DNA of 53,242 bases from a virus. Of this stretch, positions 6,556 through 32,337 are shown piece after piece. The stretch lies in IMG/VR virus record IMGVR_UViG_3300032073_005389, positions 1 through 53,242 of that record; one strand, 5' to 3'. A model generated the notes under the pieces. That model was given only the letters and a program-made list of their open reading frames with translations. It was not told the origin of the DNA and did not search any database. The translations under genes were made by a program, and so were the position numbers. Each line of letters starts with the position of its first letter. Within the stretch, counting starts at the first letter, position 1.

Positions 6556-7698
6556 TTAATTTTTTAATATATTTGATATTTTATCTGCCAACTGAATAAA
6601 CCATTGTTTGCTATGTCCTCTTGTAGTCTCTGCTGCCGTACCTATTCTTATACCACTTGTTTCTACAAAAGACCTTGGGTCATTGGGTACGCCATTCTTA
6701 TTTACTGTAATACTGTTTGATTCTAATAAATCTGCCGCTTCTCTGCCACTATATTTATTGTTAGATAAGTTAATTAATATTAAATGACTGTCAGTACCAT
6801 CTGTTTGAATTTTGATTTCATTATTTACGAAAACTCTACTCATTTCTTTAGCGTTCTCTATGACATTCTTACAGTATTCTTTAAAGTCTGGAGTTGAAGC
6901 CTCTGCGAAGGCTTGAGCCTTAGCTGCAATTATATTCATCAATGGCCCTCCTTGACTTCCGGGAAATACTGCTGAATTTATTTTTCTTGTATACTCTTGT
7001 TTATTCCAAAGTATAATCCCTCCTCTTGGCCCTCTTAGTGTTTTGTGAGTAGTGCTTGTTGTGAAATCTGCATACTCTACTGGGCTAGGGTAAGCACCTC
7101 CAGCAATTAGCCCTGAGTAATGAGCCATGTCAACTAAAAGATACGCTCCTGCTTCATCTGCTATCTGCCTAAAAATTTTCCAATCAATTATTCTAGGGTA
7201 AGCACTAGCTCCAGCTACAATCATCTTCGGTTTACAAGATAAAGCTGTATCTCTTATCTCGTCGTAATCTAAAAAGCCATCTTCATCTACTTTATAAGAA
7301 TGCGATTCAAAAAATTTACCAGACACATTAACTGAAGCACCATGTGTTAAGTGACCCCCACTAGCTAGATCCATGCCGAGTATCTTATCGTGAGGCTTTA
7401 AGAAAGCTAGGTAAATCGCAGTATTAGCATTAGCACCAGAATGAGGTTGGACATTCGCATAATTACATTTATATATATCTTTTAATTGATCTATAGCTAA
7501 CTGCTCTACTTCGTCCATATTGTCGCATCCATTGTAATACCTTTTAGATGGATAACCTTCAGCATACTTATTAGTAAATATACTACCACATAAATCCATA
7601 ACTGACTGACTAGCAAAGTTCTCACTAGCTATTAATTCTATAGTAGTGTCTTGTCTAAATTTTTCTTTATCAAGAATATCTTTTATATGATCTATCAT
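6556..7698 (-). CDS. glyA: Serine hydroxymethyltransferase
   Basis: This PLP enzyme converts serine and tetrahydrofolate to glycine and 5,10-methylene-tetrahydrofolate. Visible family motifs are ELIASENFAS (21-30), EGYPSKRYYNGC (47-58), VQPHSGANAN (83-92) and the PLP-lysine segment TTSTTHKTLRGPRGG with K219. It has 380 residues against about 417 in typical bacterial GlyA, with shortening spread along the chain and at the C-terminus. The product is the one-carbon donor for the phage ThyX, so it probably supports dTMP synthesis during infection. No Shine-Dalgarno sequence is visible before the ATG. Confidence 0.97.
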   Translation of the reverse strand: MIDHIKDILDKEKFRQDTTIELIASENFASQSVMDLCGSIFTNKYAEGYPSKRYYNGCDNMDEVEQLAIDQLKDIYKCNYANVQPHSGANANTAIYLAFLKPHDKILGMDLASGGHLTHGASVNVSGKFFESHSYKVDEDGFLDYDEIRDTALSCKPKMIVAGASAYPRIIDWKIFRQIADEAGAYLLVDMAHYSGLIAGGAYPSPVEYADFTTSTTHKTLRGPRGGIILWNKQEYTRKINSAVFPGSQGGPLMNIIAAKAQAFAEASTPDFKEYCKNVIENAKEMSRVFVNNEIKIQTDGTDSHLILINLSNNKYSGREAADLLESNSITVNKNGVPNDPRSFVETSGIRIGTAAETTRGHSKQWFIQLADKISNILKN

Positions 7699-7712
7699 TT
7701 TTGAGTATTTAA

Positions 7713-7892
7713 TTAAAATATAAGACTTCCTGCATCAGATTGTCGTCTTTGTGATTTTTTAGGTTTATCATCTAAGTGTTGAGCTATCGTCTCGGCTATG
7801 TGTTTTCTGGCTGCGGGGCTTTCAAAGTTTAATTGTTTGTGTTGTCTTTGTATCTTATTTAATATATTATTTATTTCTTTTTCTAAACTCAT
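7713..7892 (-). CDS. Small hypothetical protein (59 aa)
   Basis: A frame from the ATG at 7892 reads MSLEKEINNILNKIQRQHKQ and ends QSDAGSLIF. It is hydrophilic and helical. Its ATG overlaps the TGA of the nuclease gene upstream (ATGA), and it stops 14 nt before SHMT. The junction and the full use of the gap support it as a real gene. The function is unknown. Confidence 0.6.
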   Translation of the reverse strand: MSLEKEINNILNKIQRQHKQLNFESPAARKHIAETIAQHLDDKPKKSQRRQSDAGSLIF

Positions 7893-8323
7893 TTTTTCTT
7901 CCCTTTAAAATATTCTATTGCGTGACCTTCGTCTACTAAAATTTGATTATAACTCCTATCGTCAGTAGCTTTTATTAACTCCATAGGTAGACCGAATGAT
8001 CTTTCTGATTTAGAAGCATCTATAGATATGAACCTGTTATGAATAGGGAAAAGCTGGCCAAGTAAACGACCAAACTTTCCTTTTTTATCAATATAAGTTT
8101 TCACTCTAAATTGATTATTACCTTCTTTGATAAGCTCTTCGAGTCTAGCTTTAGCTGCAAAACCTTTTATCTTTTCCTCTTTATCTCTAGTGCGACACTC
8201 TGGGGCATCAATGCCTTGTAGTCGAATACGTTCTTTTTTGAATATGCTAAAACCACAATCAATAACTGCGTCTACTGTATCTCCATCTACCACCCTATCC
8301 AACTTTGCTCTATACTCATACAT
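7889..8323 (-). CDS. Staphylococcal-nuclease-like (SNase/thermonuclease) endonuclease
   Basis: The 144-aa protein shows the SNase fold signature: VVDGDTV at 11-17, IRLQGIDAPE at 33-42 and KGKFGRLLG at 81-89. The residues matching the catalytic set of S. aureus nuclease (D21, R35, D40, E43, R87) are D15, R34, D39, E42 and R86, all present. These enzymes are Ca2+-dependent and cut DNA and RNA. No signal peptide is seen, so it probably acts in the cytoplasm, for example in breaking down host DNA. It lies 5 nt after PurM. Confidence 0.9.
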   Translation of the reverse strand: MYEYRAKLDRVVDGDTVDAVIDCGFSIFKKERIRLQGIDAPECRTRDKEEKIKGFAAKARLEELIKEGNNQFRVKTYIDKKGKFGRLLGQLFPIHNRFISIDASKSERSFGLPMELIKATDDRSYNQILVDEGHAIEYFKGKKK

Positions 8324-8328
8324 AATAA

Positions 8329-9300
8329 CTATTTTATTTGACCGACTTGAATTATATGAGGGTAAGCCTTTCCGTCTAAAGCAACCTCAGAAGCTATTTT
8401 GTCTTTTTCCTCTGGGCTAACTACCATACACATACCTACCCCATTATTAAATACAGACTTCATTTCTTCATCTGATATTCCCCCCCATTCTTGAATTGAA
8501 TCAAATACAGAAGGGCGAGGAATATTATCTCTCCATTCGACATCTAAGCCTTCTGGCAAAACTCTATTTAGATTACTAAATCCTCCTCCAGTTATATGGG
8601 CTATACCTTTTATTTTAAATTTATTTAAAAGATGTCTTAGTCTGTATACATATATTTCAGTAGGTTTTAGCAAGTCATTTATAGTATCTTGTAATATGTC
8701 TAGTTCTTTAAGTGGGTTTCCAGATAGGCAGTACTTCCTCCTTGTTTGTAGAACTTTCCTTATTAAAGTATACCCATTGCTGTGAAAACCGTTACTTGGA
8801 AAAGCTATTACAGAATCTCCACTCTTAATAGTCTTACCATCAATGAGATCTTTCTTCTTAACTATACCTACGCAAAAACCAGCAACATCAAAAGTCTCAC
8901 TAGATACTAAAGCTGGTAATTCTGCTGTCTCACCACCTATTAGTGGTATTCCATAATCATTACAACCTTTCTTGATTGACTGAACTACTTCTAAAAACTG
9001 AGTCTCATTTATTCTACCAGAAGCAAAGTAATCTAAAAAGAACAATGGCTTGGCTCCTGTGCATATAATATCATTAACACACATCGCAACACAATCAATG
9101 CCGACACCTTTTAGGTTTTTGTATTCTTGAGCTAAAATAATCTTAGTCCCTACGCCATCGGTAGAAGCAACTAAATAATTTTCATCACACAAATCGTACA
9201 GCCCGGCAAAGCCTCCTATATTATCAACTAAATTAGAAATACTATCAGTAAGTCTGTCTGCTTTAATTATATCTACCCCTGCTTCTTTATATTTATTCAT
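8329..9300 (-). CDS. purM: Phosphoribosylformylglycinamidine cyclo-ligase (AIR synthetase)
   Basis: PurM closes FGAM to AIR using ATP, step five of purine synthesis. The sequence carries family hallmarks: YKEAGVDIIKAD at the N-terminus, LVASTDGVGTKI (46-57), GIDCVAMCVND and LIGGETAELPAL in the ATP-binding half, and AHITGGGF in the C-terminal half. It has 323 residues versus about 345 in bacteria. PurM also occurs in marine cyanophages as an auxiliary metabolic gene. PurT and PurS, the enzymes or subunits for the two preceding steps, are also in this window. The start overlaps the upstream 61-aa gene by 8 nt. Confidence 0.97.
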   Translation of the reverse strand: MNKYKEAGVDIIKADRLTDSISNLVDNIGGFAGLYDLCDENYLVASTDGVGTKIILAQEYKNLKGVGIDCVAMCVNDIICTGAKPLFFLDYFASGRINETQFLEVVQSIKKGCNDYGIPLIGGETAELPALVSSETFDVAGFCVGIVKKKDLIDGKTIKSGDSVIAFPSNGFHSNGYTLIRKVLQTRRKYCLSGNPLKELDILQDTINDLLKPTEIYVYRLRHLLNKFKIKGIAHITGGGFSNLNRVLPEGLDVEWRDNIPRPSVFDSIQEWGGISDEEMKSVFNNGVGMCMVVSPEEKDKIASEVALDGKAYPHIIQVGQIK

Positions 9301-9478
9301 CTTCTGCTAGTTCCTCCTCTACTACTCTTGCTACTTCTTTAGCTAACTCAGATGAGATTCTTTCGTGATCTTCTTGTATTGCTTGTTTCTTCCATAAAGG
9401 TAATTCTTCGTAGAGTTCATCATAAACGGCTTTATATCTTTTAGCCATTTCCTTATGTTTCTTAAGTATTCTAGGCAT
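9293..9478 (-). CDS. Small hypothetical protein (61 aa)
   Basis: An acidic/basic helical protein (MPRILKKHKEMAKRYKAVYD, ending VVEEELAEDE). It is the first gene after a perfect sigma-70 promoter whose -10 box ends 8 nt before the ATG, so it heads the PurM-SNase-SHMT-kinase operon. No function recognised. A 60-aa frame overlapping it at 9343-9525 is not compatible with that promoter. Confidence 0.65.
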   Translation of the reverse strand: MPRILKKHKEMAKRYKAVYDELYEELPLWKKQAIQEDHERISSELAKEVARVVEEELAEDE

Positions 9479-9486
9479 GAATTGTT

Positions 9487-9515
9487 ATTATATACAGAAC
9501 ATAACAAAAAGTCAA
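9487..9515 (-). promoter_or_regulatory. Sigma-70 promoter heading the purM-glyA operon
   Basis: Minus strand: TTGACT (9510-9515), 17 nt, TATAAT (9487-9492). The ATG at 9478 begins 8 nt after the -10 box, so the transcript would be nearly leaderless. Confidence 0.9.
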
Positions 9516-9518
9516 GTT

Positions 9519-9755
9519 TTACCACTTTATTTCATCAAAATTATCCCTAAATTCTTCGTAGTCAGATATCCTATTTGCGTCTCCTTTTCCAGCGGGTTTC
9601 CTTTGTCTTCCTTGCGAATCTGTTAGGTGCTTTCCTTCTTTAACGTGTTTATAGACTTCGTTTGAGTAAGTCTCGCTATGTTTGTGCTTAGTTGAGACTT
9701 TCTTCCCTTCTTTTATGTAGTACCCTTTATGTTTGTGGGTTTTCTTCTCGCTCAT
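9519..9755 (-). CDS. Small basic hypothetical protein (78 aa)
   Basis: A Lys/His-rich protein starting MSEKKTHKHKGYYIKEGKKV, turning acidic at the C-terminus (YEEFRDNFDEIKW). The repeated KHKG/KHKH and GKK pattern suggests nucleic-acid or metal binding but shows no classical finger. It ends just before the next promoter. No family recognised. Confidence 0.6.
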   Translation of the reverse strand: MSEKKTHKHKGYYIKEGKKVSTKHKHSETYSNEVYKHVKEGKHLTDSQGRQRKPAGKGDANRISDYEEFRDNFDEIKW

Positions 9756-11390: not shown

Positions 11391-11466
11391 TGGTACCCCG
11401 ACTAGGACTTGAACCTAGAATCTACAACTTAGAAGGTTGTTGCCTTATCCATTCGGCCATCGGGGC
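11391..11466 (-). tRNA. tRNA-Arg (anticodon TCT)
   Basis: The 76-nt minus-strand gene folds as a cloverleaf: acceptor GCCCCGA with TCGGGGT (first pair G-U), a 16-nt D arm, anticodon stem ACAAC/GTTGT with loop CTTCTAA (anticodon TCT), T arm CTAGG-TTCAAGT-CCTAG and an encoded CCA. It reads AGA, a codon very frequent in this AT-rich genome. It lies 11 nt after the second tRNA, downstream of purT, and is probably processed from the same transcript. Confidence 0.95.
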
Positions 11467-11477
11467 AAAATAAATTC

Positions 11478-11550
11478 TGGGCCTTGCAGGATTCGAACCT
11501 GCGGCTAATCGATTATGAGTCGACTGCTCTAACCGCTGAGCTAAAGGCCC
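11478..11550 (-). tRNA. tRNA with anticodon CAT, probably tRNA-Ile2 (lysidine type)
   Basis: A perfect 7-bp acceptor stem (GGGCCTT/AAGGCCC), anticodon stem GTCGA/TCGAT with loop CTCATAA and T arm GCAGG-TTCGAAT-CCTGC; CCA is not encoded. The anticodon is CAT, so it could be elongator Met or Ile2. The 16-nt D arm GCTCAGCGGTTAGAGC and the GACTCATAATCG core match bacterial Ile2 more closely than elongator Met. Modified by host TilS it would read AUA, which is abundant here. Confidence 0.92.
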
Positions 11551-21088: not shown

Positions 21089-23514
21089 GCTTCGCAAGCC
21101 TCCGGATTAGCGATTGAACAAGCTATTTGCTCTTCTTCTGTATATTCTTTCTTAGTTGACTTTTCAACTTTAGAAGCTCCTCTATTTCTTAAATAGTATG
21201 TAGTTTTTAATCCAGCTTCCCATGCAGCCATATAAATATCATTTAAATATTTTAAACTTGTTTCTTTATTGTAAAGATTAAATGAGACTCCTTGGTCAAT
21301 CCATTTCTGCCTTGCTGCATTACATTCAATAAGCTTGAACATATCTCTATCAAAAGCTGTTTTATACTTTTCAATATATTTTTCTGGTATATCTAAAAGA
21401 GTAACGTCTCCGTCTACGTCTTTTACTGCCTCTGCTAATTGAGGACTCCAAAGACCTTCTTTCTTCATGTCATTTACGAACTGCTCATTTGTTACGTAAA
21501 AATTACCACTCTTACATTCGTAAACAAACATTACCGAGAAGTTCGGTTCGATGCTCTGCTCCACACCGTTAATATAACCAATAGTGGCAGTAGGAGCAAT
21601 TGCCATAGTGTTACTATTTCTGATTCCATATTTTGTAATGTGTTCTCTTAAGCCTTCCCAATCTATATCTTCGCTTCCGACCTCTGTGGTTTTTTTACCT
21701 CGAAGCTTCATTAAATCATTATAAGTATCGATTGGTAATATATTCTTATCCCACAAAGAGCCAGAGTAAGTTTTGTAGCTTCCTTTTTCTTTAGCTAACT
21801 CACTCGATGCTAGAATAGCATTATAAGAAAAGAACTCTGTAAGCTCGTCAACAAACTTTACTGCTTCATCTGAATCGTACTGCACATCAAGAATCTGTAA
21901 TACGTCATGAGTAGCCATCATACCTAGACCAATAGGACGATGTTGCATATTCGAATTCCTAGCTTCTTCGGTAGGGTAGAAGTTTAAATCGATGACATTA
22001 TCAAGTATTCTGATAGCTGTCTTTACAGTAGAGGCCAAAAGCTCCCTGTCGATCCTTGGCTGCTTTGCTTCGCTAGGGATTCTAAGATGATTCTTAAGAT
22101 TGACAGAGCCAAGATTGCATACAGCAGTTTCGCCAATCTCCGTTTTAGTTCCGTTCTCATAACTAGATGGCTTTGTATGAAGAAGGATCTCCGTACAAAG
22201 GTTGGAACTATGTACTACACCTAAATGTTGGTTGCTGTAACGGATATTTGATGGATCTTTAAAGGTAATCCAAGGGTGAGAAGTCTCGAATAAAACCTTT
22301 AACATCTTTTTCCATAGATCTTTAGCGTTAATGGTGCGATAATTTGATAATTCTCCTTTATCTGCCTTTTCGCACATTTCATTGTAAACCTTCTCAAATT
22401 CCTGACCAAAAGTTTCATGTAAATCTTTACAATCAGATGGGCAAAACATATACCATTGTTCATTATTCTTGACCTTCTGCATGAACAAATCTGGAACCCA
22501 AGAAGCAGTATTCATATCGTGACAACGCAAACGGTCGTCACCTGTGTTGCGGCGCAGATTGAGAAAATCTTCAAAATCAAGATGCCAAGGTTCTAGATAT
22601 GCACATCCAGCCCCGGGCCTCTTTCCGCCTTGATTTACCGCGACAAGTGTGTCGTTGAGGATTTTGAGCCATGGCACAAGACCTCCAGAAATCCCGTTTG
22701 TGCCTTTGATATAAGCCCCAGAAGCACGAAAATTAGTAACGTCAAAGCCAAGACCTCCAGCGTACTTACTCTTTCTGGCTTCTTGCCAGACCCCTTCGAA
22801 TATTCCGTCAATGCTGTCATCGAATGTATTTAAATAACATGAACTTAATTGTGAGTGAGTTGTTCCACTGTTAAACAATGTAGGAGTGGATGGAGTATAC
22901 AACATATTACTAAATAAATTATAAAACTCAATTGCTCTCTCTTCTTTATTTTCTTCATTAATTGCTAACCCCATTGCTACTCTCATCCAGAAAGCTTGGG
23001 GAGTTTCCATTATCTTATTATTTACACGAATAAAGTATCTATCTATTAAAATTTGCAGACCTAAATATTTGAATAAAGAATCTCGTTCTGGCTGCATAGC
23101 TACTGAAAGCTTCTTTAAATCAAAATCCAGTAATTTTGCAGATAGAATGTCTTCTTTAACTAATTTTTTTATATTTAATACAAATGCTTTTTTATATTGT
23201 AAGTCAAAAGTATCGCTGTCTACGCTCTCCCTAAATACTTCCTTATATAGAGCGTTGGCAGCTAGCGCGGCAGCGACTTTGCTATAATTTGGTTCTTTTT
23301 CTATTTTTGCTCTAGCAGAAAGAATTAAAGCTTCATCTATCTCTTTGGTTGTTATCTTATCAAATAATTGTAATTGAGCATCTAAAATTACCTCGCTCGC
23401 TGAAACATTATTTCCGTCAATTCCTTCACAAGCCCTGTAAACGCACTTGTTTATTTTCTCTACATCAAAGTTCTCTAATTTTCCGTTTCTTTTCTTTACT
23501 TTAAGATTCTGCAT
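21079..23514 (-). CDS. nrdA: Ribonucleotide reductase large subunit, class I
   Basis: The 811-aa protein starts with an ATP-cone regulatory domain (VKKRNGKLENFDVEKINKCV and on to about residue 95). It has the catalytic cysteines in context: LSSCYLNTFDDS (counterpart of E. coli C225), SNLCTEILLHTK (C439/E441) and AVCNLGSVNL (C462). The C-terminal redox pair is ACEACQ. It reduces NDPs to dNDPs with NrdB. The ATP cone indicates overall activity control by ATP/dATP. The gene has its own promoter and a 46-nt leader with an inverted repeat, unlike most genes here. Confidence 0.97.
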   Translation of the reverse strand: MQNLKVKKRNGKLENFDVEKINKCVYRACEGIDGNNVSASEVILDAQLQLFDKITTKEIDEALILSARAKIEKEPNYSKVAAALAANALYKEVFRESVDSDTFDLQYKKAFVLNIKKLVKEDILSAKLLDFDLKKLSVAMQPERDSLFKYLGLQILIDRYFIRVNNKIMETPQAFWMRVAMGLAINEENKEERAIEFYNLFSNMLYTPSTPTLFNSGTTHSQLSSCYLNTFDDSIDGIFEGVWQEARKSKYAGGLGFDVTNFRASGAYIKGTNGISGGLVPWLKILNDTLVAVNQGGKRPGAGCAYLEPWHLDFEDFLNLRRNTGDDRLRCHDMNTASWVPDLFMQKVKNNEQWYMFCPSDCKDLHETFGQEFEKVYNEMCEKADKGELSNYRTINAKDLWKKMLKVLFETSHPWITFKDPSNIRYSNQHLGVVHSSNLCTEILLHTKPSSYENGTKTEIGETAVCNLGSVNLKNHLRIPSEAKQPRIDRELLASTVKTAIRILDNVIDLNFYPTEEARNSNMQHRPIGLGMMATHDVLQILDVQYDSDEAVKFVDELTEFFSYNAILASSELAKEKGSYKTYSGSLWDKNILPIDTYNDLMKLRGKKTTEVGSEDIDWEGLREHITKYGIRNSNTMAIAPTATIGYINGVEQSIEPNFSVMFVYECKSGNFYVTNEQFVNDMKKEGLWSPQLAEAVKDVDGDVTLLDIPEKYIEKYKTAFDRDMFKLIECNAARQKWIDQGVSFNLYNKETSLKYLNDIYMAAWEAGLKTTYYLRNRGASKVEKSTKKEYTEEEQIACSIANPEACEACQ

Positions 23515-23533
23515 ATGTGTGGTATAATAATTA

Positions 23534-23552
23534 CAGTTAATTTGGTTAACTG
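23534..23552. repeat. Inverted repeat in nrdA leader (possible operator)
   Basis: CAGTTAA and TTAACTG flank TTTGG: a perfect 7-bp inverted repeat between the nrdA -10 box and its start codon. It could be a repressor site or weak RNA hairpin. It does not match the NrdR-box consensus as I know it. Confidence 0.45.
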
Positions 23553-23566
23553 ACCCAGAAAATACT

Positions 23567-23595
23567 ATTCTAACCTAAACTTTTTTTTAGGTCAA
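23567..23595 (-). promoter_or_regulatory. Sigma-70 promoter for nrdA operon
   Basis: Minus strand: TTGACC (23590-23595), 17 nt with an A8 run, TAGAAT (23567-23572). The leader to the ATG at 23514 is about 46 nt. Confidence 0.85.
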
Positions 23596-26159
23596 GCAAT
23601 ATCCTTTAATTCTGACAATTTTGTGAATATTTTTTGACTTTGGATACCAATATCATCAATAAAAACACAATCGTCTCGCTTAGAACCCCTAATTATGACA
23701 ACATCGTCCTTAATTGGAGCCCTACCGTTTACAAGCTTACTCTCGTCTATCTTCTGATTAAACTGTAGACAAGTAACGTTGCCTGTCTCATCAGAGCAAA
23801 GCAAACGCATATATTCAGAACCTTTCTTAGATTTACCTTTGAAATAGTCGGCAATACTAGATATAAACACGACTCTCTCTCCGACTCTTCTGCTGTTTAC
23901 GTTATAAATACTCATTAAATTAGGTACTTGTTTAGAGTAAACCTCTTTAAGCGAATTAGCATGAGAATAACCTAATAACTTTTTCTCATAATACCAATTA
24001 GCTAAACTTTCAGATTTGCTATTCTGCATATAGATATCTTTATAAGGTTGGTATTTTTTCTTAATAGTCCCAAATCTTGATTCTTTAATATGCACTTTTC
24101 CGTTTTCGTCTTTCCTCTCTGTTAAGTCTTTTATAACTTTAACTAGATCAAAATCAAATTTTTCTCCAAGAGAATAGGCTATTCTTTTTTCTCTTTGGGT
24201 TAATAGGTTCCAAAGCTGAGCCTCTAAGACAATCTTACTTCTAGATTGAGAGAATCCTTCAAATGCTCCTGCTTGTATTAGAGCTGAGAGAACTCCTATT
24301 CCTACCTTAGCTTCACTTGCAGCTTGGAATACCTCAAACTTATTAGCAAAGTCAGATCTAAAGTTATTCAACTTCTCTATAGTCTTATCAGATATACCTT
24401 TGATAGACGTAAGTCCGTACCTAATATTCTCACCTTCAATAGAAAAATCCATTTTAGATTTAGTTATGTGAGGTGGGAGCAGTTTGATATCAAACAATCT
24501 AAGCTCAACTTGAATCTTGTTGATTTCTGCAAGAGGATCTGGTTCATGCTTTGTCATTTTAAGCAATGAAAGAAAGAACTCTTTAGGGTACTTAAATTTT
24601 AAGTAAGTCGTTATTGCAGCAAGAGCAGCGTAGCAAATAGAATGAGATTTATTGAAAGAGTAATTAGCTGAATCCTCTAACACTTTCCATAGAACATCTC
24701 CTACATCAGTTTTAAGTTTATTCTCTTTAACTTTTTCTGAGATCTTCTTCTTCCATTCTCTTACCTCTTTAACTTTCTTCTTGCCTACGATTCGTCTTAG
24801 AATCTCCGCTTCATCAAGAGTGAAACCAATTTTGTGAGCCATCTGCATCAACTGTTCTTGGTACAAAGCAACCCCACCAGACTTTTTGAGTATATCGTCA
24901 AATAAAGGATGAATAGGTTCATATACATCGTTATTTGAATAACTAGCATACTGATCTACAAAACCCAAAGCTCCCGGTCTACCTAGGGCTAAAACAGCAC
25001 TAAGCTCCTCTAAGCTCTTAGGCTTAACTTTCTGACAAACACGGTAGTTAGTGTCTGCTTCAATCTGAAAAAGGCCGTGAGGGGTTTCTAAGTCTTGAAG
25101 GCTCCTATATATAAAAGGATCGTCAAGATTAATATCAGTGATTTTAAGATTAACTTGCTTGCATACGTCATCAACTACTGAGACACTACGCAGACCAAGT
25201 ATATCAAGTTTAACATTAAATAAAGACACCCAGTTCATGTCATAAGACGATACTAAAGCTTTATCTGATGTTAATTCTACTGGACAACTATCCTGTAGTT
25301 CGTCATACGAGAGTAAGATACCAGAAGCGTGAACACTCTTATTTTTAATTAAGTTTCTTAACTTAAGTGAGATATCATAAGCTTCTTTGTTTTCTGAATC
25401 ATCTGCCCAGTCTCTAAACTCTGGCACTTCGTCATATGTTTCTTCAAGATCCTTTACTTGACCAAAGATTTTAGGTATGTATCCGGAAACAGTATTCATT
25501 TCTGTTTCACTTTTACTAGCTATAATCTTGCCGCATTCTTTTATTAAAAGCTTTCCACTTAGAGTATTAAGAGTCAGTATCTTAGCTGTCTTCCCTTTAA
25601 ATTTATTATCTATATACTCTAGAACTTCTTGTCTCTTGTAATAGCATACGTCATTATCAATATCAACCATTAGGTTTCCATCAAGATAAGTTACTCCATC
25701 TACAACTTGTTTTTTAGCTCTGATCTTCGAGATAAATCTTTCAAAGAATAAATCGTATTTTATTGGATCTAAGTTAGTGACTCCTAGAAGGAATAATACG
25801 AGACTACCAGCAGCGGAGCCACGACCTAGCCCAATCGGGATATCACTTTTCTTACAAAAATCAATAACGTCCCAAGTGAGAAGCATATAATCCACAAACC
25901 CTAGCTCTATCATTGTATTGAGCTCATGCTTAGCTCTGTCAGCGTATTCTTTGGCTTTAGAGGGGTCTATGTCCTTAGCTTCAACTTTGGTCTTGTAGCC
26001 TTCGTTGCAGAGCTTTTTTAGGATCGAGGCGTTGTCTTCGTCTTTATCTGCTCCTAGTCTATCTCTTAATGATTGACTCGCCTCAAAAGATGGAAGTCTT
26101 ACTCCGTGAAGAGGTAAATCAATTTTTTTAAATTTTTTAATAAAAGTCTCTGTTTTCAT
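23592..26159 (-). CDS. DNA polymerase III alpha-type (DnaE) polymerase core, lacking PHP domain
   Basis: This 855-aa protein is the palm, fingers and C-terminal part of a family C polymerase. GRGSAAGS (112-119) binds the triphosphate. The palm acids are D166 and D168 (VDIDND) and D319 (KLDILGLRS), matching E. coli D401, D403 and D555. ALIQAGAFEGF marks the helix-hairpin-helix and VVFISSIADYFKGKSKKGSE the OB fold. It starts at LHGVRLPSF, the point in DnaE where the PHP region ends, so the PHP part is missing. That part is encoded separately at 27380-28147, with an HNH nuclease and an exonuclease gene between. The C-terminal tau-binding part seems short. Confidence 0.95.
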   Translation of the reverse strand: MKTETFIKKFKKIDLPLHGVRLPSFEASQSLRDRLGADKDEDNASILKKLCNEGYKTKVEAKDIDPSKAKEYADRAKHELNTMIELGFVDYMLLTWDVIDFCKKSDIPIGLGRGSAAGSLVLFLLGVTNLDPIKYDLFFERFISKIRAKKQVVDGVTYLDGNLMVDIDNDVCYYKRQEVLEYIDNKFKGKTAKILTLNTLSGKLLIKECGKIIASKSETEMNTVSGYIPKIFGQVKDLEETYDEVPEFRDWADDSENKEAYDISLKLRNLIKNKSVHASGILLSYDELQDSCPVELTSDKALVSSYDMNWVSLFNVKLDILGLRSVSVVDDVCKQVNLKITDINLDDPFIYRSLQDLETPHGLFQIEADTNYRVCQKVKPKSLEELSAVLALGRPGALGFVDQYASYSNNDVYEPIHPLFDDILKKSGGVALYQEQLMQMAHKIGFTLDEAEILRRIVGKKKVKEVREWKKKISEKVKENKLKTDVGDVLWKVLEDSANYSFNKSHSICYAALAAITTYLKFKYPKEFFLSLLKMTKHEPDPLAEINKIQVELRLFDIKLLPPHITKSKMDFSIEGENIRYGLTSIKGISDKTIEKLNNFRSDFANKFEVFQAASEAKVGIGVLSALIQAGAFEGFSQSRSKIVLEAQLWNLLTQREKRIAYSLGEKFDFDLVKVIKDLTERKDENGKVHIKESRFGTIKKKYQPYKDIYMQNSKSESLANWYYEKKLLGYSHANSLKEVYSKQVPNLMSIYNVNSRRVGERVVFISSIADYFKGKSKKGSEYMRLLCSDETGNVTCLQFNQKIDESKLVNGRAPIKDDVVIIRGSKRDDCVFIDDIGIQSQKIFTKLSELKDIA

Positions 26160-26794
26160 AGTTCTAATGCGTACTTTAATTTATTCCATACTTTAAGGTT
26201 TAATTCTAAATCTACTATTGCATTATGTAGCTTATCATAATCGTGTTCAATATTAAACTCTTTTCCTAAGAGTGTTAAGCTGCTTCTGATTCCTTTTCTC
26301 CTTGTGTTAACAATTCTATATTGATACTCAGTAAAGTCTTCTTCTGGTTTATATGGTATCTCCATCTTCACTCCTCTTGCTATGCAGTTAGTGTCTATTA
26401 ACTTAGGAACAAGAGGTTTATAATCTTCCCCAAACATTTTATACATCTCTTTAATTAAATATATGTCAAAACCTATAATGTTATGTCCAACAATATAATC
26501 AGCACCATCTAACCATTTTTTTATAGTGGGAAAAACTTCTTTAGGTTCTCTTCCGTTTTTTTGGACAAACTTGTCATCATATCTAGTTATCCTTTTTGCG
26601 TCTTCACTAATTTTAAAAGGGGTATCCCATTTTATATAAAAATCCTTCTCGTCTTTCTTATATGTACCATCTGTACTAATCATCGATATCTGCCAAGCTA
26701 CGTTATGGCAAAAGTTAAGGCAGAGGTTATATGTCTCGCAGTCAATAAAGACTACCTTTTTATCTTTTCTAAATCTGAGTAAATGTTCGTCCAT
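26156..26794 (-). CDS. DEDDh 3'-5' exonuclease (DnaQ/epsilon-like)
   Basis: The 212-aa protein shows the proofreading exonuclease set: FIDCET with D18 and E20, GHNIIGFD with D110, and the DEDDh motif LHNAIVDLEL with H190 and D195. It presumably proofreads for the phage polymerase core, whose gene it overlaps by 4 nt. In PolC-type enzymes an exonuclease domain of this class sits ahead of the polymerase core within one chain. Here the order PHP, exonuclease, core is similar but spread over separate genes. The ATG lies 4 nt after the HNH gene stop. Confidence 0.93.
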   Translation of the reverse strand: MDEHLLRFRKDKKVVFIDCETYNLCLNFCHNVAWQISMISTDGTYKKDEKDFYIKWDTPFKISEDAKRITRYDDKFVQKNGREPKEVFPTIKKWLDGADYIVGHNIIGFDIYLIKEMYKMFGEDYKPLVPKLIDTNCIARGVKMEIPYKPEEDFTEYQYRIVNTRRKGIRSSLTLLGKEFNIEHDYDKLHNAIVDLELNLKVWNKLKYALEL

Positions 26795-26798
26795 GTTA

Positions 26799-27380
26799 TT
26801 AAATACTTTTAAAATTTGTTCTGAAAAATAAATGTGTTAAATCTAACTTACTTTCTTTTTTTCTTTGTGGGTTCTTCCTGTTGTTTGATTCGTTTGACCA
26901 TCTTAGATTTACTGGCCTCCAATCTAAATACTGCCAACCAGCGCTTATGTCAAGGGGGTTCCAATTAAAAGCTTCATAGATTTTGTATATGATATCTTCG
27001 TTGTTTTCGTTAATATGATCTACTATAATTTGTGATCCGGGCTTTGAGTTTTTATGAAAGCAAAGGCTTACTAATTTATGGATAGCTATTGTAACACCAC
27101 CGGGACTAACGGCAGGATATTGATTTCTATTTGGGCCTATAGATAAGACCTCGTTTTTTTTGACATTTTTAACATACGGCATACAAGATAGCTTTGGGTG
27201 ACCTTTTGGATAAATAAAAAAAGTATCAATATCTATTTTATTTAACTTCTTTATCAATCTGTTTCCTTCTTTAGAGTTTATGTCTCCACCTTTATATTTT
27301 ATACTTATTTTAGATATATCAAAACCTCCTTCTTGGGCTTCGACTTTATCGTAGTTTGAAAAAAGCTCTAGCTGCTCCAT
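26799..27380 (-). CDS. HNH endonuclease, probably homing type
   Basis: I start at ATG 27380 (MEQLELFSNYDK), which overlaps the stop of the PHP gene as TAATG; a TTG 27 nt upstream is in frame. The 193-aa protein contains an HNH module near the C-terminus: AIHKLVSLCF (99-108), VDHINEN (120-126), then DWRPVNLRWSNESNNRKN (153-170), the usual pattern of phage homing endonucleases. The N-terminal 80 residues may bind DNA. Its position between two halves of a polymerase gene fits a mobile element that entered the polymerase locus. No intron or intein boundaries are visible. Confidence 0.9.
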   Translation of the reverse strand: MEQLELFSNYDKVEAQEGGFDISKISIKYKGGDINSKEGNRLIKKLNKIDIDTFFIYPKGHPKLSCMPYVKNVKKNEVLSIGPNRNQYPAVSPGGVTIAIHKLVSLCFHKNSKPGSQIIVDHINENNEDIIYKIYEAFNWNPLDISAGWQYLDWRPVNLRWSNESNNRKNPQRKKESKLDLTHLFFRTNFKSI

Positions 27381-28147
27381 TACGCTTTGGCTTGAGACTC
27401 CTTCCAACTTTCAAAACTAAATTCATTAGAGCATAAATGATCAAACCTAGGATTTTCTAATGTGGTTCTGTTATTGATACATTTAAATGTTAGATAAGCT
27501 TTGAAGTCTTCTTTCTTTTCATAGTAAACCGACTTGACATCAAGGGTATTAAATTTATTATCTTTGCAGTAGTTTAAAACTTTTTTTCTTATTAAGAAAT
27601 CGAAAGGGATATCGTTATCTTCTAAGAAGAATACAGGTTTAGTGAAAGAAAAATCCGGAAAGCACAAAGAAAAAGTCAGAGTGTTATTAAAAAGAAATGA
27701 ATCATAAAAAGGTACGCAAAGCTGTAAGTCTTTATCAGACCAAAAAGATTTTATTTTATTTAGATCTGTTCTTGGCTGGTAGTAGAATCCCTTAGATGCT
27801 GCATCGCTAGATATCTTAATCAGTCTCTTGTATCCTTGCTCATTTCTTGCTAAGATAACATATTTAGATTCTTTAGACACGGACTCTTTATCCTTCACAG
27901 ATGAATCCTCACATACGCTCACTCTTAAACCAAAGACTAATTTTATGTTGTTGTTCTCGCAATTCTGAAAAGCCTCAAGGAAACCGTTCATACTGTCCTC
28001 GATTAGAAACACAGAGTCCATCTTGTTTCTCTTAGCTATCTCTATTATAGAGGATGGCTTTTTTGCGTTTGGCTCCTCGTTGTCTTCTAAGGTAAGTATT
28101 GACTTACCTATGCTATAGTGGGATTTAAATAAAGGTACAGACTGCAT
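27380..28147 (-). CDS. N-terminal PHP-domain part of DnaE-type polymerase, split off
   Basis: The 255-aa protein (start ATG 28147, MQSVPLFKSHYSIGKS) follows the DnaE N-terminal plan. It has an LHxHSxYS-like segment degenerated to FKSHYSIG, then IIEIAKRNKMDSVFLIED, NGFLEAFQNCENNNIKLVFG and a C-terminal YLTFKCINNRTTLENP. The metal-binding His residues of the PHP domain are mostly replaced, so phosphoesterase activity is unlikely. It ends where the linker to the palm begins. A strong promoter lies 12 nt upstream. Together with the core at 23592-26159 it would restore a DnaE of about 1110 residues. Confidence 0.82.
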   Translation of the reverse strand: MQSVPLFKSHYSIGKSILTLEDNEEPNAKKPSSIIEIAKRNKMDSVFLIEDSMNGFLEAFQNCENNNIKLVFGLRVSVCEDSSVKDKESVSKESKYVILARNEQGYKRLIKISSDAASKGFYYQPRTDLNKIKSFWSDKDLQLCVPFYDSFLFNNTLTFSLCFPDFSFTKPVFFLEDNDIPFDFLIRKKVLNYCKDNKFNTLDVKSVYYEKKEDFKAYLTFKCINNRTTLENPRFDHLCSNEFSFESWKESQAKA

Positions 28148-28159
28148 CTTCCTTTTTTT

Positions 28160-28188
28160 AGGATAACGCAAACTTTAAATAATGTCAA
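28160..28188 (-). promoter_or_regulatory. Sigma-70 promoter for split polymerase operon
   Basis: Minus strand: TTGACA (28183-28188), 17 nt, TATCCT (28160-28165), 12 nt to the ATG at 28147. A longer TTG start at 28171 would lie upstream of the transcription start, which argues for the ATG. Confidence 0.8.
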
Positions 28189-28189
28189 G

Positions 28190-29170
28190 TTAAAAATCTG
28201 AGAAGTCAAAAGCTTTAGATGAAGAAACAGATTTAGGGACATTAGACCAAGCTGGGCATCCTTCGTAGTCCTTCTTTGTTATCTCGTATTTTCCGTTCTT
28301 GTCGTCCAGATCTTCTTTAGAGAAGGCGCTTCTAATTATTTTGCCAGTTTCTTTATCTTCTAAGGCATAGAACTGAAAAGGCTTCCTAACTGGACAAATC
28401 CACTTTCCGGGTTTTTCACTACCACAAAGCCACCTATATTTTCTTCCTTCTTTAGCTAGATTTTCTTTAGCTTTGTTTTCGTCAAATACAGCTATTTGTT
28501 CAGCAAGGGACTCAAGGAATAATTCAAACCCTTCTAGTTCTTCTTTTGTTAGTTTTGGAGCTTCTTGCTCTGGAGAGTCAGGAAAACGGAGGAATAAGAA
28601 TTTAACACTAGGAATAACTCCATCTTTCTTAAGAGTAGCTAAAGAATACATTAAAGCTTGGTAATTAGCATTTATTTCTTCTTTATTGAATTTAGATTTG
28701 CTGCTCTTGTAGTCCCAGATATCTATTTTATTTTTATAAAAAGCTTTTTTATCAATGAAGCCGTTAATAACAAAGTTTGACCCTTCTATTTCAAAATGCT
28801 CTTCTGGTTTTAATTCTTTTGAGCCTTTGCAATAAAAGTTATAATTTAGCCCTACATAAATCATTTGGTAAATTAAAGAAAGGTTTTCTTCGTCATCTAC
28901 CCCTAATAGTTTTGCATGGCTGAGTACGTGCCTATGTACTGCCTTGCATTTGAATATTGATTCTGGACTCTTTTTAAGTCTATTAAAATACTTAGCTTTA
29001 TGCCTAGGGTTAAGTAGTAGCTCAAAAACTAAATGTACGATGGTGCCTCTGTAGGCACCGTCGTTGCCGGTATCCGGCGTTTTTAAATTGTATTTAGAAT
29101 AAAAAAGCCAACTACATGTATCTAAAGTCTTGATTTTACTGGCACTAAGCCGTACTTTGGGTTTGTTCAT
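28190..29170 (-). CDS. PD-(D/E)XK nuclease, RecB/Cas4-like, candidate Fe-S protein
   Basis: The 326-aa protein has the RecB-nuclease layout: SASKIKTLDTCSWLFYSKY (9-27), GTIVHLVFE (42-50), ING.ID with D140, DYKSSK with D153 and K155, and the Q-x3-Y motif Q171/Y175. Four cysteines, C19 near the N-terminus and C249, C259 and C305 near the C-terminus, are placed like the [4Fe-4S] ligands of AddB and Cas4. It probably degrades or processes DNA ends in replication and recombination. Its start overlaps the primase gene by 26 nt. Function follows the family; the cluster is inferred from cysteine positions. Confidence 0.87.
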   Translation of the reverse strand: MNKPKVRLSASKIKTLDTCSWLFYSKYNLKTPDTGNDGAYRGTIVHLVFELLLNPRHKAKYFNRLKKSPESIFKCKAVHRHVLSHAKLLGVDDEENLSLIYQMIYVGLNYNFYCKGSKELKPEEHFEIEGSNFVINGFIDKKAFYKNKIDIWDYKSSKSKFNKEEINANYQALMYSLATLKKDGVIPSVKFLFLRFPDSPEQEAPKLTKEELEGFELFLESLAEQIAVFDENKAKENLAKEGRKYRWLCGSEKPGKWICPVRKPFQFYALEDKETGKIIRSAFSKEDLDDKNGKYEITKKDYEGCPAWSNVPKSVSSSKAFDFSDF

Positions 29171-30119
29171 GAAAAAAGTTCCTTAAAAGGGTAGGTTCCT
29201 GCTGGTGCATTTCGTTAAAATCGTTATATCCTTTTGGTAGTTTTATTGTTATTTGATCGTAATCAAAAAAGTCTAACATTTTTTTTCTAGCTATGTAGGC
29301 TGCTTTGTTACCTGCTCCACTATTAGCGGAGTCATCATTAAAAGATATAAAAATTTTATCTGGATCAAGTCTAGTTAATACACTAAGCATGTCTGGTGAT
29401 ATAATTACACCAAAAGAGACTATTACATTTTTGATATTATTCTCCCATAAAGAAAGCATGTCTCCTATACTTTCTACAATTATAACAGATTTTTGTTTCC
29501 TTATTATTTGTAGATTGTTGAGAAGGGGATATCTCCATTTAGATTTGTTTCCTACGTGCTTCCATTTAGGCCTAAAGAATTTTGAATCTTCGTTATTGGT
29601 TGGGTTTAAGTCTCTACCGGAAAAACCAACTATCTTTTCTTGTTTGTTAAATATGGGAAAAACATATCTATTTGCCATTGTTGACTTCTTGCCATTTTCT
29701 GTTATTCCTCCCTTAAAGTGACAAAGAGTATCGTTGCTTATCCCTCTGCTATTCCAGTAAGAATGGTCTGGTATTAATTTACTTAATAATTCATTTTTAA
29801 AAATTTTAGTTTGTTTAAGTTGAGGAGCTCTAGATTCAAGATTTGACTCATTTGGGCTTACGCCTTTGTCTACAAGCCACTTTGTCGCTTCTCCGTGAGA
29901 TTTCAGCCTAAGAGTTATCCTTATTAAATCCTCAAAAGAACCACCTATATCTTCTCTGAAGTCTTTCCATCTACCATTAGACTTATCTATGCTTAATACA
30001 GTATGACTACTAGAGTCTCTATATAAAGGTTTAGTTCTGTAATATTTACCTTGGTCGCTTAAAGAATAACCAATGTCAGTAAGTATATCTCTTATTTGAT
30101 CTGGGTCAAAAGATGTCAT
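29145..30119 (-). CDS. DNA primase, TOPRIM type
   Basis: The 324-aa protein has an N-terminal part that follows the DnaG zinc-domain pattern (KYYRTKPLYRDSSSHTVLSI, GRWKDFREDIGGSFEDLI) but with no zinc cysteines. The middle contains GRDLNP. A TOPRIM domain follows: VIIVESIGDML with E216, then FISFNDDSANSGAGNKAA with D262/D263. It would make RNA primers for the phage fork. It lacks the C-terminal helicase-binding domain of bacterial DnaG, being about half its length. The helicase gene overlaps it by 4 nt directly upstream. Confidence 0.9.
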   Translation of the reverse strand: MTSFDPDQIRDILTDIGYSLSDQGKYYRTKPLYRDSSSHTVLSIDKSNGRWKDFREDIGGSFEDLIRITLRLKSHGEATKWLVDKGVSPNESNLESRAPQLKQTKIFKNELLSKLIPDHSYWNSRGISNDTLCHFKGGITENGKKSTMANRYVFPIFNKQEKIVGFSGRDLNPTNNEDSKFFRPKWKHVGNKSKWRYPLLNNLQIIRKQKSVIIVESIGDMLSLWENNIKNVIVSFGVIISPDMLSVLTRLDPDKIFISFNDDSANSGAGNKAAYIARKKMLDFFDYDQITIKLPKGYNDFNEMHQQEPTLLRNFFHEQTQSTA

Positions 30120-31579
30120 AATAAGTTATCTCTCTCGCTTTCTGAATCATTAAGAGTGGCTTGCATGGCTCTGTTTTCAGATATAGTCTGTAAGGTTCCG
30201 TGTTCAGAAACGCTAAAGTTTTCAATGTTATAATTTATAAAGTTAGGAACATATTTGTATCTATTTCCTTCTGCTACTCTGACTAAGTCTGTATGCCCTT
30301 GGGCTTCTCTACCTTGGAACCTTGTGGCTAGAGGTATTAATTTATGAGTGCCAAACTCCCTACCTTCTTCAGATATCTCTTCTGGACTTTTTCTTCTAAA
30401 GATGGCGACAAAAGAGGCAAACCATTGCAACCTATCAGATTGAGCAATAGCACTACTATCATCCACACCACTCTCGGCAGATCTATTTAACTGACAAGCG
30501 GTAAGTAGTGGTATGTCTAACTCAAGAGTTAGCTCTTTTAAGGTATTTACTTTTTCGCCTATGAGCTCGTATTCTTTTTTATTGTTATCTTTCTCTCCGG
30601 TAAGTTTGATGTAATCATAGACTACAACGCAGTTATTCCCTCTTCCTACATGCGTGTAATACCATCTCCTAACTATAGAGCAAATTTCTTGAATAGGTTT
30701 TCCCGCTACAGTCATGTGCATGACGTTACGTTTAGCTTGATAAAATCTATCTTTATTTTCTTCAAACTTTTTAACCATGTCTTCGTTCTTTCTCCATTGA
30801 CCAGTCTCTAAATACCAGACAGGTATTCCGGTAACTGCTGAAGCTATTCTGAATTGAACATCTACAGTTGACATTTCTGTATCAAGAATCAAAGCTGGGC
30901 ATTCGTTTATAACAGACATCTCCGTAGCTAGGTGAGATAAAATAGTAGACTTTCCGTGTTTAGGTCTACTCACCCAAGCATATATATTACCTTTTCTTAT
31001 GCCACCGAACATAGTGTTGAAATTATCATAAGGGGTTTTTAAACCCATTTCATCTTGAGGATCTAAGCCCCTTTCGTTTATGAGATCTTCTATACCGTCA
31101 AATAAAGCTTCTGGTTCATTAAGTTTAGAATACTCTTGTATTTTATTATTATATATTTGATCTGCTTCTGTTACTATAGAGTCAGCGTCTTTATGACCAT
31201 TAGTTTTTACAAAGTCTTTTAATTTAGTAGCTGTTTCGTCTATTTCTCTTCTTATCCTTATTTTGCATAGCTCTTTGCATGCTTCTATTAAAGCTTCTTT
31301 TGTTATTTGAGTGAAATATATATCCTCAATATAATTAAAAATATCTACTTCGCTTTTGAAGGATACTCCTAAGTTCTTAATTTGATGAGCTAAAAGCGTT
31401 TTATCTAACTTTTTACCAGAAGATAGAATATCTTTTATTGTAGAGTATATAACATAATGCTCTTTTGAGACGAAATCTGATGTAGTGACGAATTTATCTA
31501 CGTCAAAGAATACATCTGGGTACTTAAGTAAGCCGCCTAGAACGTGTCTTTCTATTTTGAGGGAGGATATATTGGGCAT
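30116..31579 (-). CDS. Replicative DNA helicase, DnaB-like
   Basis: The 487-aa protein has a DnaB N-terminal domain (LKIERHVLGGLLKYPDVFFD) and a RecA-fold motor. Walker A is AWVSRPKHGKST (201-212), the DnaB-type KTPYDNFNTMFGGIRKGNIY precedes it, and VVVYDYIKL and LLTACQLNR follow as Walker B and sensor segments. It unwinds DNA at the fork with the primase encoded next. The C-terminal 25 residues are acidic. The start is the ATG at 31579, 9 nt after a candidate -10 box. Confidence 0.95.
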   Translation of the reverse strand: MPNISSLKIERHVLGGLLKYPDVFFDVDKFVTTSDFVSKEHYVIYSTIKDILSSGKKLDKTLLAHQIKNLGVSFKSEVDIFNYIEDIYFTQITKEALIEACKELCKIRIRREIDETATKLKDFVKTNGHKDADSIVTEADQIYNNKIQEYSKLNEPEALFDGIEDLINERGLDPQDEMGLKTPYDNFNTMFGGIRKGNIYAWVSRPKHGKSTILSHLATEMSVINECPALILDTEMSTVDVQFRIASAVTGIPVWYLETGQWRKNEDMVKKFEENKDRFYQAKRNVMHMTVAGKPIQEICSIVRRWYYTHVGRGNNCVVVYDYIKLTGEKDNNKKEYELIGEKVNTLKELTLELDIPLLTACQLNRSAESGVDDSSAIAQSDRLQWFASFVAIFRRKSPEEISEEGREFGTHKLIPLATRFQGREAQGHTDLVRVAEGNRYKYVPNFINYNIENFSVSEHGTLQTISENRAMQATLNDSESERDNLL

Positions 31580-31913: not shown

Positions 31914-31923
31914 AATTACACTA
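31914..31923 (-). promoter_or_regulatory. Recurrent start-proximal motif TAGTGTAATT
   Basis: Third of four identical copies, six bases upstream of the ATG at 31907; it overlaps the stop codon of the upstream endonuclease gene. Confidence 0.4.
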
Positions 31924-32337
31924 TAAATCCACTTTAAATTTATTTTTAAAAAACTCTTCAGATAGAAGGTTTACTTCATCGTGGTTAATTTCTATTAAGT
32001 TATACTTGTTTTGCTCTAACCACTCTAATTTTTTAAAGTCTCTATTGATAGACTTTAGGTAATTTACCCTAGAATTTGCGTGAAAAAACTTGTTAAAGTT
32101 GCCGTGTTGAGCTCCATTAACCTCAACTGCGATCTTTTTTGTGGCATTAAGTATGTCTACCTTCATTCTACTGCCGTAAACAGGAAATTCTTCGTAGACA
32201 ATGCAAGATTTCCAGTATCTTTTTAAGAATTGTTTTACATCAAATTGAAGCTTTGACCTGCTTTTCCCGTCCCATTTTATTAAATATTTATTAACGCCTT
32301 TGTTTTCTAAGCGTCCATATATATTATAAAGCCTCAC
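31921..32337 (-). CDS. PD-(D/E)XK-type endonuclease, Vsr/DUF559-like
   Basis: The 138-aa protein contains VYEEFPVYGSRMKVDILN followed by KKIAVEVNGAQHG, which gives the nuclease acids E50, D61 and E72 and a late Q77-H78. The C-terminal half, RDFKKLEWLEQNKYNLIEIN, is the helix-strand found in Vsr- and DUF559-type nucleases. It may be a freestanding homing or repair endonuclease. It is overlapped by 4 nt by the upstream 88-aa gene. The assignment is by fold pattern. Confidence 0.75.
   Translation of the reverse strand: MRLYNIYGRLENKGVNKYLIKWDGKSRSKLQFDVKQFLKRYWKSCIVYEEFPVYGSRMKVDILNATKKIAVEVNGAQHGNFNKFFHANSRVNYLKSINRDFKKLEWLEQNKYNLIEINHDEVNLLSEEFFKNKFKVDL

What the first reader, a model, noticed from the sequence alone, without database searches (positions are those of the whole stretch)
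23592..28188. DnaE-type replicase split into PHP and core genes with an HNH nuclease and exonuclease in between
The polymerase N-terminal part (degenerate PHP) and the palm/core lie in separate genes, broken at the linker between the domains. The gap holds an HNH homing-type nuclease and the DEDDh proofreading exonuclease. The palm aspartates are intact, so the enzyme should work as two chains. The order PHP-exonuclease-core also echoes PolC. Family C polymerases are uncommon in phages and this arrangement seems new.
Basis: partly seen in the sequence, partly recalled or inferred. Interest (0 to 1): 0.8.

Follow-up and report, generated by a model that had tools for sequence, protein, structure and literature searches.

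The report
Three-gene split phage DNA replicase
A large group of uncultivated water phages carries its bacterial-type DNA copying enzyme as three neighbouring genes (a dead scaffold domain, a proofreading nuclease and the polymerase) instead of one polymerase plus one nuclease; the extra HNH gene in this phage is a later passenger and not the cause of the split.

Summary
On the minus strand lie a degenerate PHP gene, an HNH-type ORF, a DEDDh exonuclease and a PHP-less DnaE-type polymerase core with its palm aspartates intact. Related sequences change the meaning. In about 195 non-identical loci from IMG/VR and two metagenome-assembled genomes (MAGs), PHP, exonuclease and core are always separate genes in that order and never fused. 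The split cores form one clade (support 100; 46 dereplicated rows) on a long stem. The HNH occurs only in the window and one closely similar contig. It sits cleanly between the PHP stop and the exonuclease; a close relative has PHP and exonuclease touching at that point. So the HNH did not cause the split; that junction is a general cargo site. The family is DnaE1-like and not PolC-like, and no intein or catalogued intron was found. The PHP active site is lost throughout, while exonuclease and polymerase active sites are kept. Best reading: a three-subunit Pol III alpha in which a dead PHP chain scaffolds exonuclease and core, as the fused PHP does in E. coli. The inter-chain interface was not tested. 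A two-gene PHP/core split already exists, of independent origin, in isolated Microbacterium phages. New variant of a known kind.

The parts
27380..28171 (-). PHP subunit gene (ORF 263 aa; probable start ATG at 28147, 255 aa). Homologous to PolIII alpha PHP domain (Taq alpha residues 49-258); metal-site residues lost
26799..27380 (-). HNH-type nuclease ORF (193 aa from ATG; ORF extends to TTG 27407). Clean insertion between PHP stop and exonuclease; found only here and in IMGVR 3300024344_003209
27378..27382 (-). TAATG: PHP stop overlaps HNH start by 1 nt; in L008 the same TAATGG joins PHP directly to the exonuclease start
26156..26794 (-). DEDDh 3'-5' exonuclease (212 aa), DnaQ-like catalytic domain without the long epsilon tail
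26156..26159 (-). ATGA overlap of exonuclease stop and core start (translational coupling inferred)
23592..26159 (-). Polymerase core (855 aa): palm, thumb, fingers, HHH, OB; no PHP, no tau-binding C-terminal domain
28190..29170 (-). PD-(D/E)XK (Cas4/RecB-like) nuclease, conserved neighbour of the replicase cassette
29145..31579 (-). DnaG-type primase (29145-30119) and DnaB-type helicase (30116-31579), conserved upstream neighbours

Best explanation
The locus encodes a DnaE1-type (family C) replicase permanently divided into three polypeptides made from one tightly packed gene block: a catalytically dead PHP subunit, a DEDDh proofreading exonuclease and a PHP-less polymerase core. SHOWN: the gene structure, domain identities, loss of the PHP metal site, retention of exonuclease and polymerase catalytic residues, clade-wide conservation of the order PHP-exonuclease-core, and a single origin of the split cores in the trees. 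INFERRED: the PHP chain docks non-covalently on the palm/thumb where the fused PHP domain sits in bacterial alpha subunits and holds the exonuclease there, as the dead PHP of E. coli alpha holds epsilon; the 4-nt exonuclease/core overlap keeps their synthesis matched; the sliding clamp is the host's. The HNH gene is a separate, recent, probably selfish insertion into the PHP-exonuclease junction, which serves as a cargo site across the clade.
For: Domains. Order and separation: 226 loci (195 non-identical PHP/exonuclease junctions) with exonuclease between, none fused; the 9 fused cases are all cellular genomes or other phages. Split cores monophyletic at SH-aLRT 100 with 46 rows, and 100/100 in a careful tree. 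Deep members (45-52% core identity to the window, L163, L164, L174, L175) share the order, with PHP/exonuclease and exonuclease/core overlapping in L174. HNH-less close relatives L005 and L008 have PHP and exonuclease adjacent or touching. Purifying selection: dN/dS 0.013 exonuclease, 0.021 core, 0.138 HNH (window vs L002). No beta clamp found in 19 viral contigs of up to 178 kb. Precedent for a dead PHP as structural element and for PHP decay alongside a separate exonuclease: PMC3666897.
Against: No direct evidence of contact between the chains. The single-chain core model was poor (pLDDT 65, pTM 0.46). The exonuclease lacks the long C-terminal tail by which E. coli epsilon grips the PHP, so its docking must differ. 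The core shows no consensus clamp-binding motif. Sequence-only evidence: no expression or biochemistry is known to me for this clade.
Confidence: 0.78

Rival explanations
1. The HNH gene split an originally continuous polymerase gene here (fractured-gene or homing-endonuclease scenario, as in polymerases interrupted by homing endonucleases).
For: An HNH lies between the parts in the window. Bacillus phage KLEB27-3 has an HNH between two halves of a DnaE gene, though at another site, inside the polymerase core.
Against: HNH found only in the window and one closely similar contig; about 193 other junctions are split without it, including deep relatives. Without the HNH the exonuclease gene still separates PHP from core.
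Confidence: 0.03
2. The chains are rejoined by protein or RNA splicing (split intein or intron) into a normal alpha subunit.
For: Split inteins are known in cyanobacterial DnaE and in a phage PolB (PMC3919608; PMC6892783).
Against: PHP ends within a few residues of its homology and the core starts about 15 residues before its own, leaving no room for intein halves; no Rfam intron in 23000-29500 even at E<=1; a complete, conserved exonuclease gene lies between.
Confidence: 0.02
3. The core works alone and the PHP protein has been freed for another task (for example a DNA-binding or host-takeover role).
For: The PHP metal-site positions are rebuilt with new conserved residues (e.g. K16, S17, H18, D59, S214), which could be a new function; PHP diverges somewhat faster than core (46-78% vs 61-83% identity).
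Against: PHP never occurs without exonuclease and core where the contig allows a check; the PHP domain is present in all C-family polymerases and its damage lowers stability and activity of E. coli Pol III (PMC3666897).
Confidence: 0.12
4. An offshoot of PolC, in which the exonuclease sits within the PHP, that later broke into three genes.
For: Gene order PHP-exonuclease-core superficially resembles PolC.
Against: Core and PHP match DnaE1 models far better than PolC (core 484 bits to PRK05673, no PolC model at E<=0.01; PHP 67 vs 20 bits); the exonuclease matches epsilon-type models, not PolC; in PolC the exonuclease interrupts the PHP, here it follows it.
Confidence: 0.03

Closest known systems
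DnaE1-type DNA polymerase III alpha plus separate DnaQ/epsilon (E. coli Pol III core)
   Same: Same palm, fingers, HHH and OB order and catalytic aspartates; inactive PHP; proofreading by a DEDDh exonuclease on its own gene
   Different: PHP on its own polypeptide; no tau-binding C-terminal domain; exonuclease lacks the long alpha-binding tail; all three genes adjacent
Krampusvirus (Microbacterium phages Krampus, JDawG) genes 56/57 and 55/56
   Same: PHP (model 1-280) and core (model 307-874) in two adjacent genes 10 nt apart
   Different: No exonuclease between; PHP also matches active-type PHP families; independent origin (one clade with ours rejected, AU p 6e-45)
Pbunavirus SN and Pantoea phage Kyle polymerases
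   Same: DEDDh/epsilon-type exonuclease gene directly upstream of a family C polymerase, overlapping it in SN
   Different: Single long polymerase gene (1,036 aa in SN), long enough to include the PHP
Bacillus phage KLEB27-3, Rossellomorea phage phiT1, Mycobacterium phage MrMiyagi, Lactococcus phage AM3
   Same: Family C phage polymerase in two genes; HNH in between in KLEB27-3
   Different: In KLEB27-3, phiT1 and MrMiyagi the break is inside the polymerase core, not at PHP/palm; AM3's site was not mapped
PolC
   Same: PHP, DEDDh exonuclease and family C core in one replicase
   Different: PolC is one chain with the exonuclease inserted into the PHP; sequence models favour DnaE1 strongly

Membership tests
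C-family DNA polymerase, DnaE1-like | DNA_pol3_alpha, finger and HHH domains with palm aspartates | tested here: met
C-family DNA polymerase, DnaE1-like | PHP domain within the same polypeptide as the palm | tested here: not met
   separate genes in about 195 loci, never fused
C-family DNA polymerase, DnaE1-like | Consensus beta-clamp-binding motif | tested here: inconclusive
   one strict motif type absent from nearly all 175 cores; degenerate motifs cannot be excluded
C-family DNA polymerase, DnaE1-like | C-terminal tau-binding domain | tested here: not met
   window core matches PRK05673 only to 1044/1146 and ends after the OB domain
PolC | Exonuclease inserted within the PHP; PolC model best | tested here: not met
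   PHP complete before the exonuclease; DnaE models far better
DnaQ/epsilon proofreading exonuclease | DEDDh catalytic residues | tested here: met
   D18, E20, D110, H190, D195 invariant
DnaQ/epsilon proofreading exonuclease | Long C-terminal alpha-binding tail | tested here: not met
   protein ends 17 residues after the last catalytic Asp
Active PHP proofreading nuclease | Nine metal-site residues HHDHEH[C/H]DH (PMC12926913) | tested here: not met
   HxH, D, H, E, H and DxH positions all replaced; the C/H position not reliably aligned
Intein-split DnaE | Intein halves at the break | tested here: not met
   no extra sequence at PHP end or core start
HNH homing endonuclease | HNH domain | tested here: met
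   PHROG HNH families E 1.4e-5 to 8e-4 only
HNH homing endonuclease | Presence/absence polymorphism at an otherwise intact site | tested here: met
   window and L002 vs L005 and L008
HNH homing endonuclease | Cleaves HNH-free alleles and homes | not testable with these tools
   needs a cleavage or co-infection assay

The most novel reading that the evidence does not exclude
A clade-wide new subunit architecture for family C replicases: the PHP domain, otherwise an integral part of C-family polymerases, works in trans as a dedicated non-catalytic subunit that assembles the exonuclease and the polymerase core, so the replicase is an obligate three-chain enzyme in a large group of aquatic phages.
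Probability: 0.6. Interest if true: 0.6.

Novelty: new variant of a known kind. Interest (0 to 1): 0.5.

Why it matters
What a dead PHP domain does in Pol III alpha has been hard to study because it cannot be disturbed without harming the whole protein. Here evolution has put it on its own chain, so core, PHP and exonuclease can be mixed at will; that makes the scaffold hypothesis (PMC3666897) directly testable. It also means annotation pipelines may miss or misname part of the replicase in hundreds of aquatic phages. The novelty is moderate: Krampusvirus shows an independent PHP/core fission, and a dead PHP plus a separate exonuclease is standard in proteobacteria.

Tried and rejected
HNH as cause of the split: rejected. 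Split intein or intron: rejected. PolC origin: rejected on sequence models. Own sliding clamp: none found with PF02767 in 19 viral contigs; a T4-type clamp search (PF02916) rang nowhere, controls included, so it is uninformative; PF03420 was a wrong family choice of mine. Clamp-binding role of the MEQLELF start of the HNH: a lead only, since QLxLF also occurs in the RNR and two other window ORFs. AlphaFold of the core was too poor to use; its Foldseek hits to Pol III rest on TM about 0.2. The PHP model is moderate (pLDDT 67), but its 17 significant Foldseek hits are all family C polymerases. PHP dS was saturated, so no dN/dS for it. HNH relatives in INPHARED: none. Literature searches found no description of this clade's split, but only open-licence PMC papers were searchable and the main survey of phage replicases (Kazlauskas and Venclovas 2011) was not held.

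Full report
WHAT IS THERE. The window is an IMG/VR phage fragment of 53,242 bp, 35% G+C, no end repeats found, with rIIA/rIIB, UvsX-like recombinase, ThyX and ribonucleotide reductase genes. On the minus strand runs a replication block: DnaB-type helicase, DnaG-type primase, PD-(D/E)XK nuclease, PHP, HNH, exonuclease, polymerase core, RNR. The likely PHP start is the ATG at 28147, since L002 has a stop codon upstream of it, and the likely HNH start is the ATG at 27380.

DOMAINS. NCBIfam TIGR00594 covers PHP (17-245) and core (272-1020) with no overlap. Against solved structures the PHP profile matches Taq Pol III alpha 49-253 and the core profile 381-949. The window core ends after the OB domain, without the tau-binding end. 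In an alignment with fused relatives, the split PHPs lose the HxH, D, H, E, H and DxH ligand positions and instead share conserved residues such as K16, S17, D59 and S214. None of 195 keeps the canonical first motif. The exonuclease keeps DEDDh throughout, and the core keeps its palm motifs.

THE SPLIT IS OLD AND GENERAL. Relatives were collected with the core, the PHP alignment, the deep-core alignment and the HNH and from genome contigs. Of about 255 loci screened with three profile HMMs, 226 had PHP and core in separate frames with the exonuclease between; none of this clade was fused; the 9 fused loci were cellular genomes or other phages. These reduce to 195 non-identical PHP/exonuclease junctions, with 107 gaps of 60 nt or less. 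Loci where PHP or core was missing were mostly truncated by contig ends or were fused outgroups whose PHP scored too low. In a tree of 46 dereplicated split cores and 14 unsplit ones, the split group needs one change and has support 100 on a stem of about 3 changes per site. A second, careful tree gives 100/100. So the split is a founding trait of a deep clade with two large subclades. Caveat: sampling followed similarity to this clade, so a fused sister lineage may have been missed.

THE HNH IS A LATE PASSENGER. It occurs only in the window and in IMGVR_UViG_3300024344_003209 (L002). In L008 the PHP end reads TAATGG, where TAA ends PHP and ATG starts the exonuclease; in the window the same TAATGG ends PHP and starts the HNH, which is followed 4 nt later by the exonuclease. 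The HNH therefore uses the start context formerly used by the exonuclease (inference). It evolves under weaker constraint than its neighbours (dN/dS 0.138 vs 0.013 and 0.021). Other lineages carry at this junction LAGLIDADG, another HNH, IMPDH-like, SET-domain, cupin and several unassigned genes. Clustering of homing endonuclease genes beside essential phage genes such as DNA polymerase and RNR is documented (PMC10448857).

HOW IT PROBABLY WORKS. In E. coli, the PHP of alpha is inactive, is a major structural element of the enzyme, and is proposed to position the separate exonuclease; damage to it lowers stability and activity (PMC3666897). The present clade has the same parts list on three chains. 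The simplest model is non-covalent assembly into a Pol III-like core, with the exonuclease/core pair linked by an ATGA overlap and with the host's sliding clamp. The exonuclease must dock differently from epsilon because the long tail is missing; its C-terminus instead ends in a short conserved pattern ([WYF]x[ILVM][END][ILVM] in 170 of 190), a possible docking peptide. None of the contacts is shown.

COMPARISON WITH THE KNOWN. Family C polymerases occur in 1,302 of 50,697 INPHARED phage records. No isolate in that set has a close relative (all below 60% identity). Two-gene family C polymerases exist among isolates: Krampusvirus is split at PHP/core without an exonuclease between, and a common clade with ours is rejected. 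KLEB27-3, phiT1 and MrMiyagi are split inside the core. Pbunavirus SN and Kyle have exonuclease then a full-length polymerase. What is new here is the three-gene form with a dead PHP in trans as a constant trait of a large uncultivated clade.

LIMITS. No multimer prediction was available; the core model was poor; the host is unknown (the two genome-contig hits, one in a Halobacteriovorax MAG, may be phage contigs binned by chance); contigs are incomplete, so the absence of a clamp gene is provisional; the literature search covered open-licence papers only.

Noticed in passing
L109:7710-8060 and 111 other loci, between exonuclease and core: A conserved small protein of about 65-115 aa (consensus MASLDDIYDMIQKL...EYLLITIQKGKK.GKADVFYSLKD) sits between exonuclease and core in one subclade; absent in the window's close kin. 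Unknown function, possibly a further replicase component.
   Followed up: partly
PHP-exonuclease junction, e.g. L104:5561-6763, L100:4135-5049, L197:1263-2312, L199:4786-5349: Cargo site with more than 20 unrelated gene families, including LAGLIDADG and HNH nucleases, IMPDH-like, SET-domain and cupin proteins and several unassigned families.
   Followed up: partly
window 26156-26200 and homologues: The exonuclease C-terminus ends in [WYF]x[ILVM][END][ILVM] in 170 of 190 relatives, a possible docking peptide.
   Followed up: partly
window 27360-27380: HNH protein probably starts MEQLELF, resembling a beta-clamp-binding pentapeptide, conserved in L002; the motif also occurs in other window ORFs.
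   Followed up: partly
L262 and L272 (Microbacterium phages JDawG, Krampus): Isolated phages with PHP and polymerase core as two adjacent genes, both annotated DnaE-like; an experimentally tractable parallel case.
   Followed up: yes
L260 (CAKLQF020000001.1): Record named Acinetobacter phage MD-2021a looks like a bacterial chromosome contig (379 kb; ansB, dnaE, cysE), probably mislabelled.
   Followed up: no
window 31921-32337: Small nuclease-like gene (weak DUF559 and homing-endonuclease PHROG matches) conserved upstream of the helicase across the clade.
   Followed up: no
window 11391-11550: Two adjacent tRNA genes, Arg(tct) and Met(cat).
   Followed up: no
L009:7021-7467 and 7412-9619: Core gene of this relative is broken by a frameshift near residue 144, possibly a sequencing error.
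   Followed up: no
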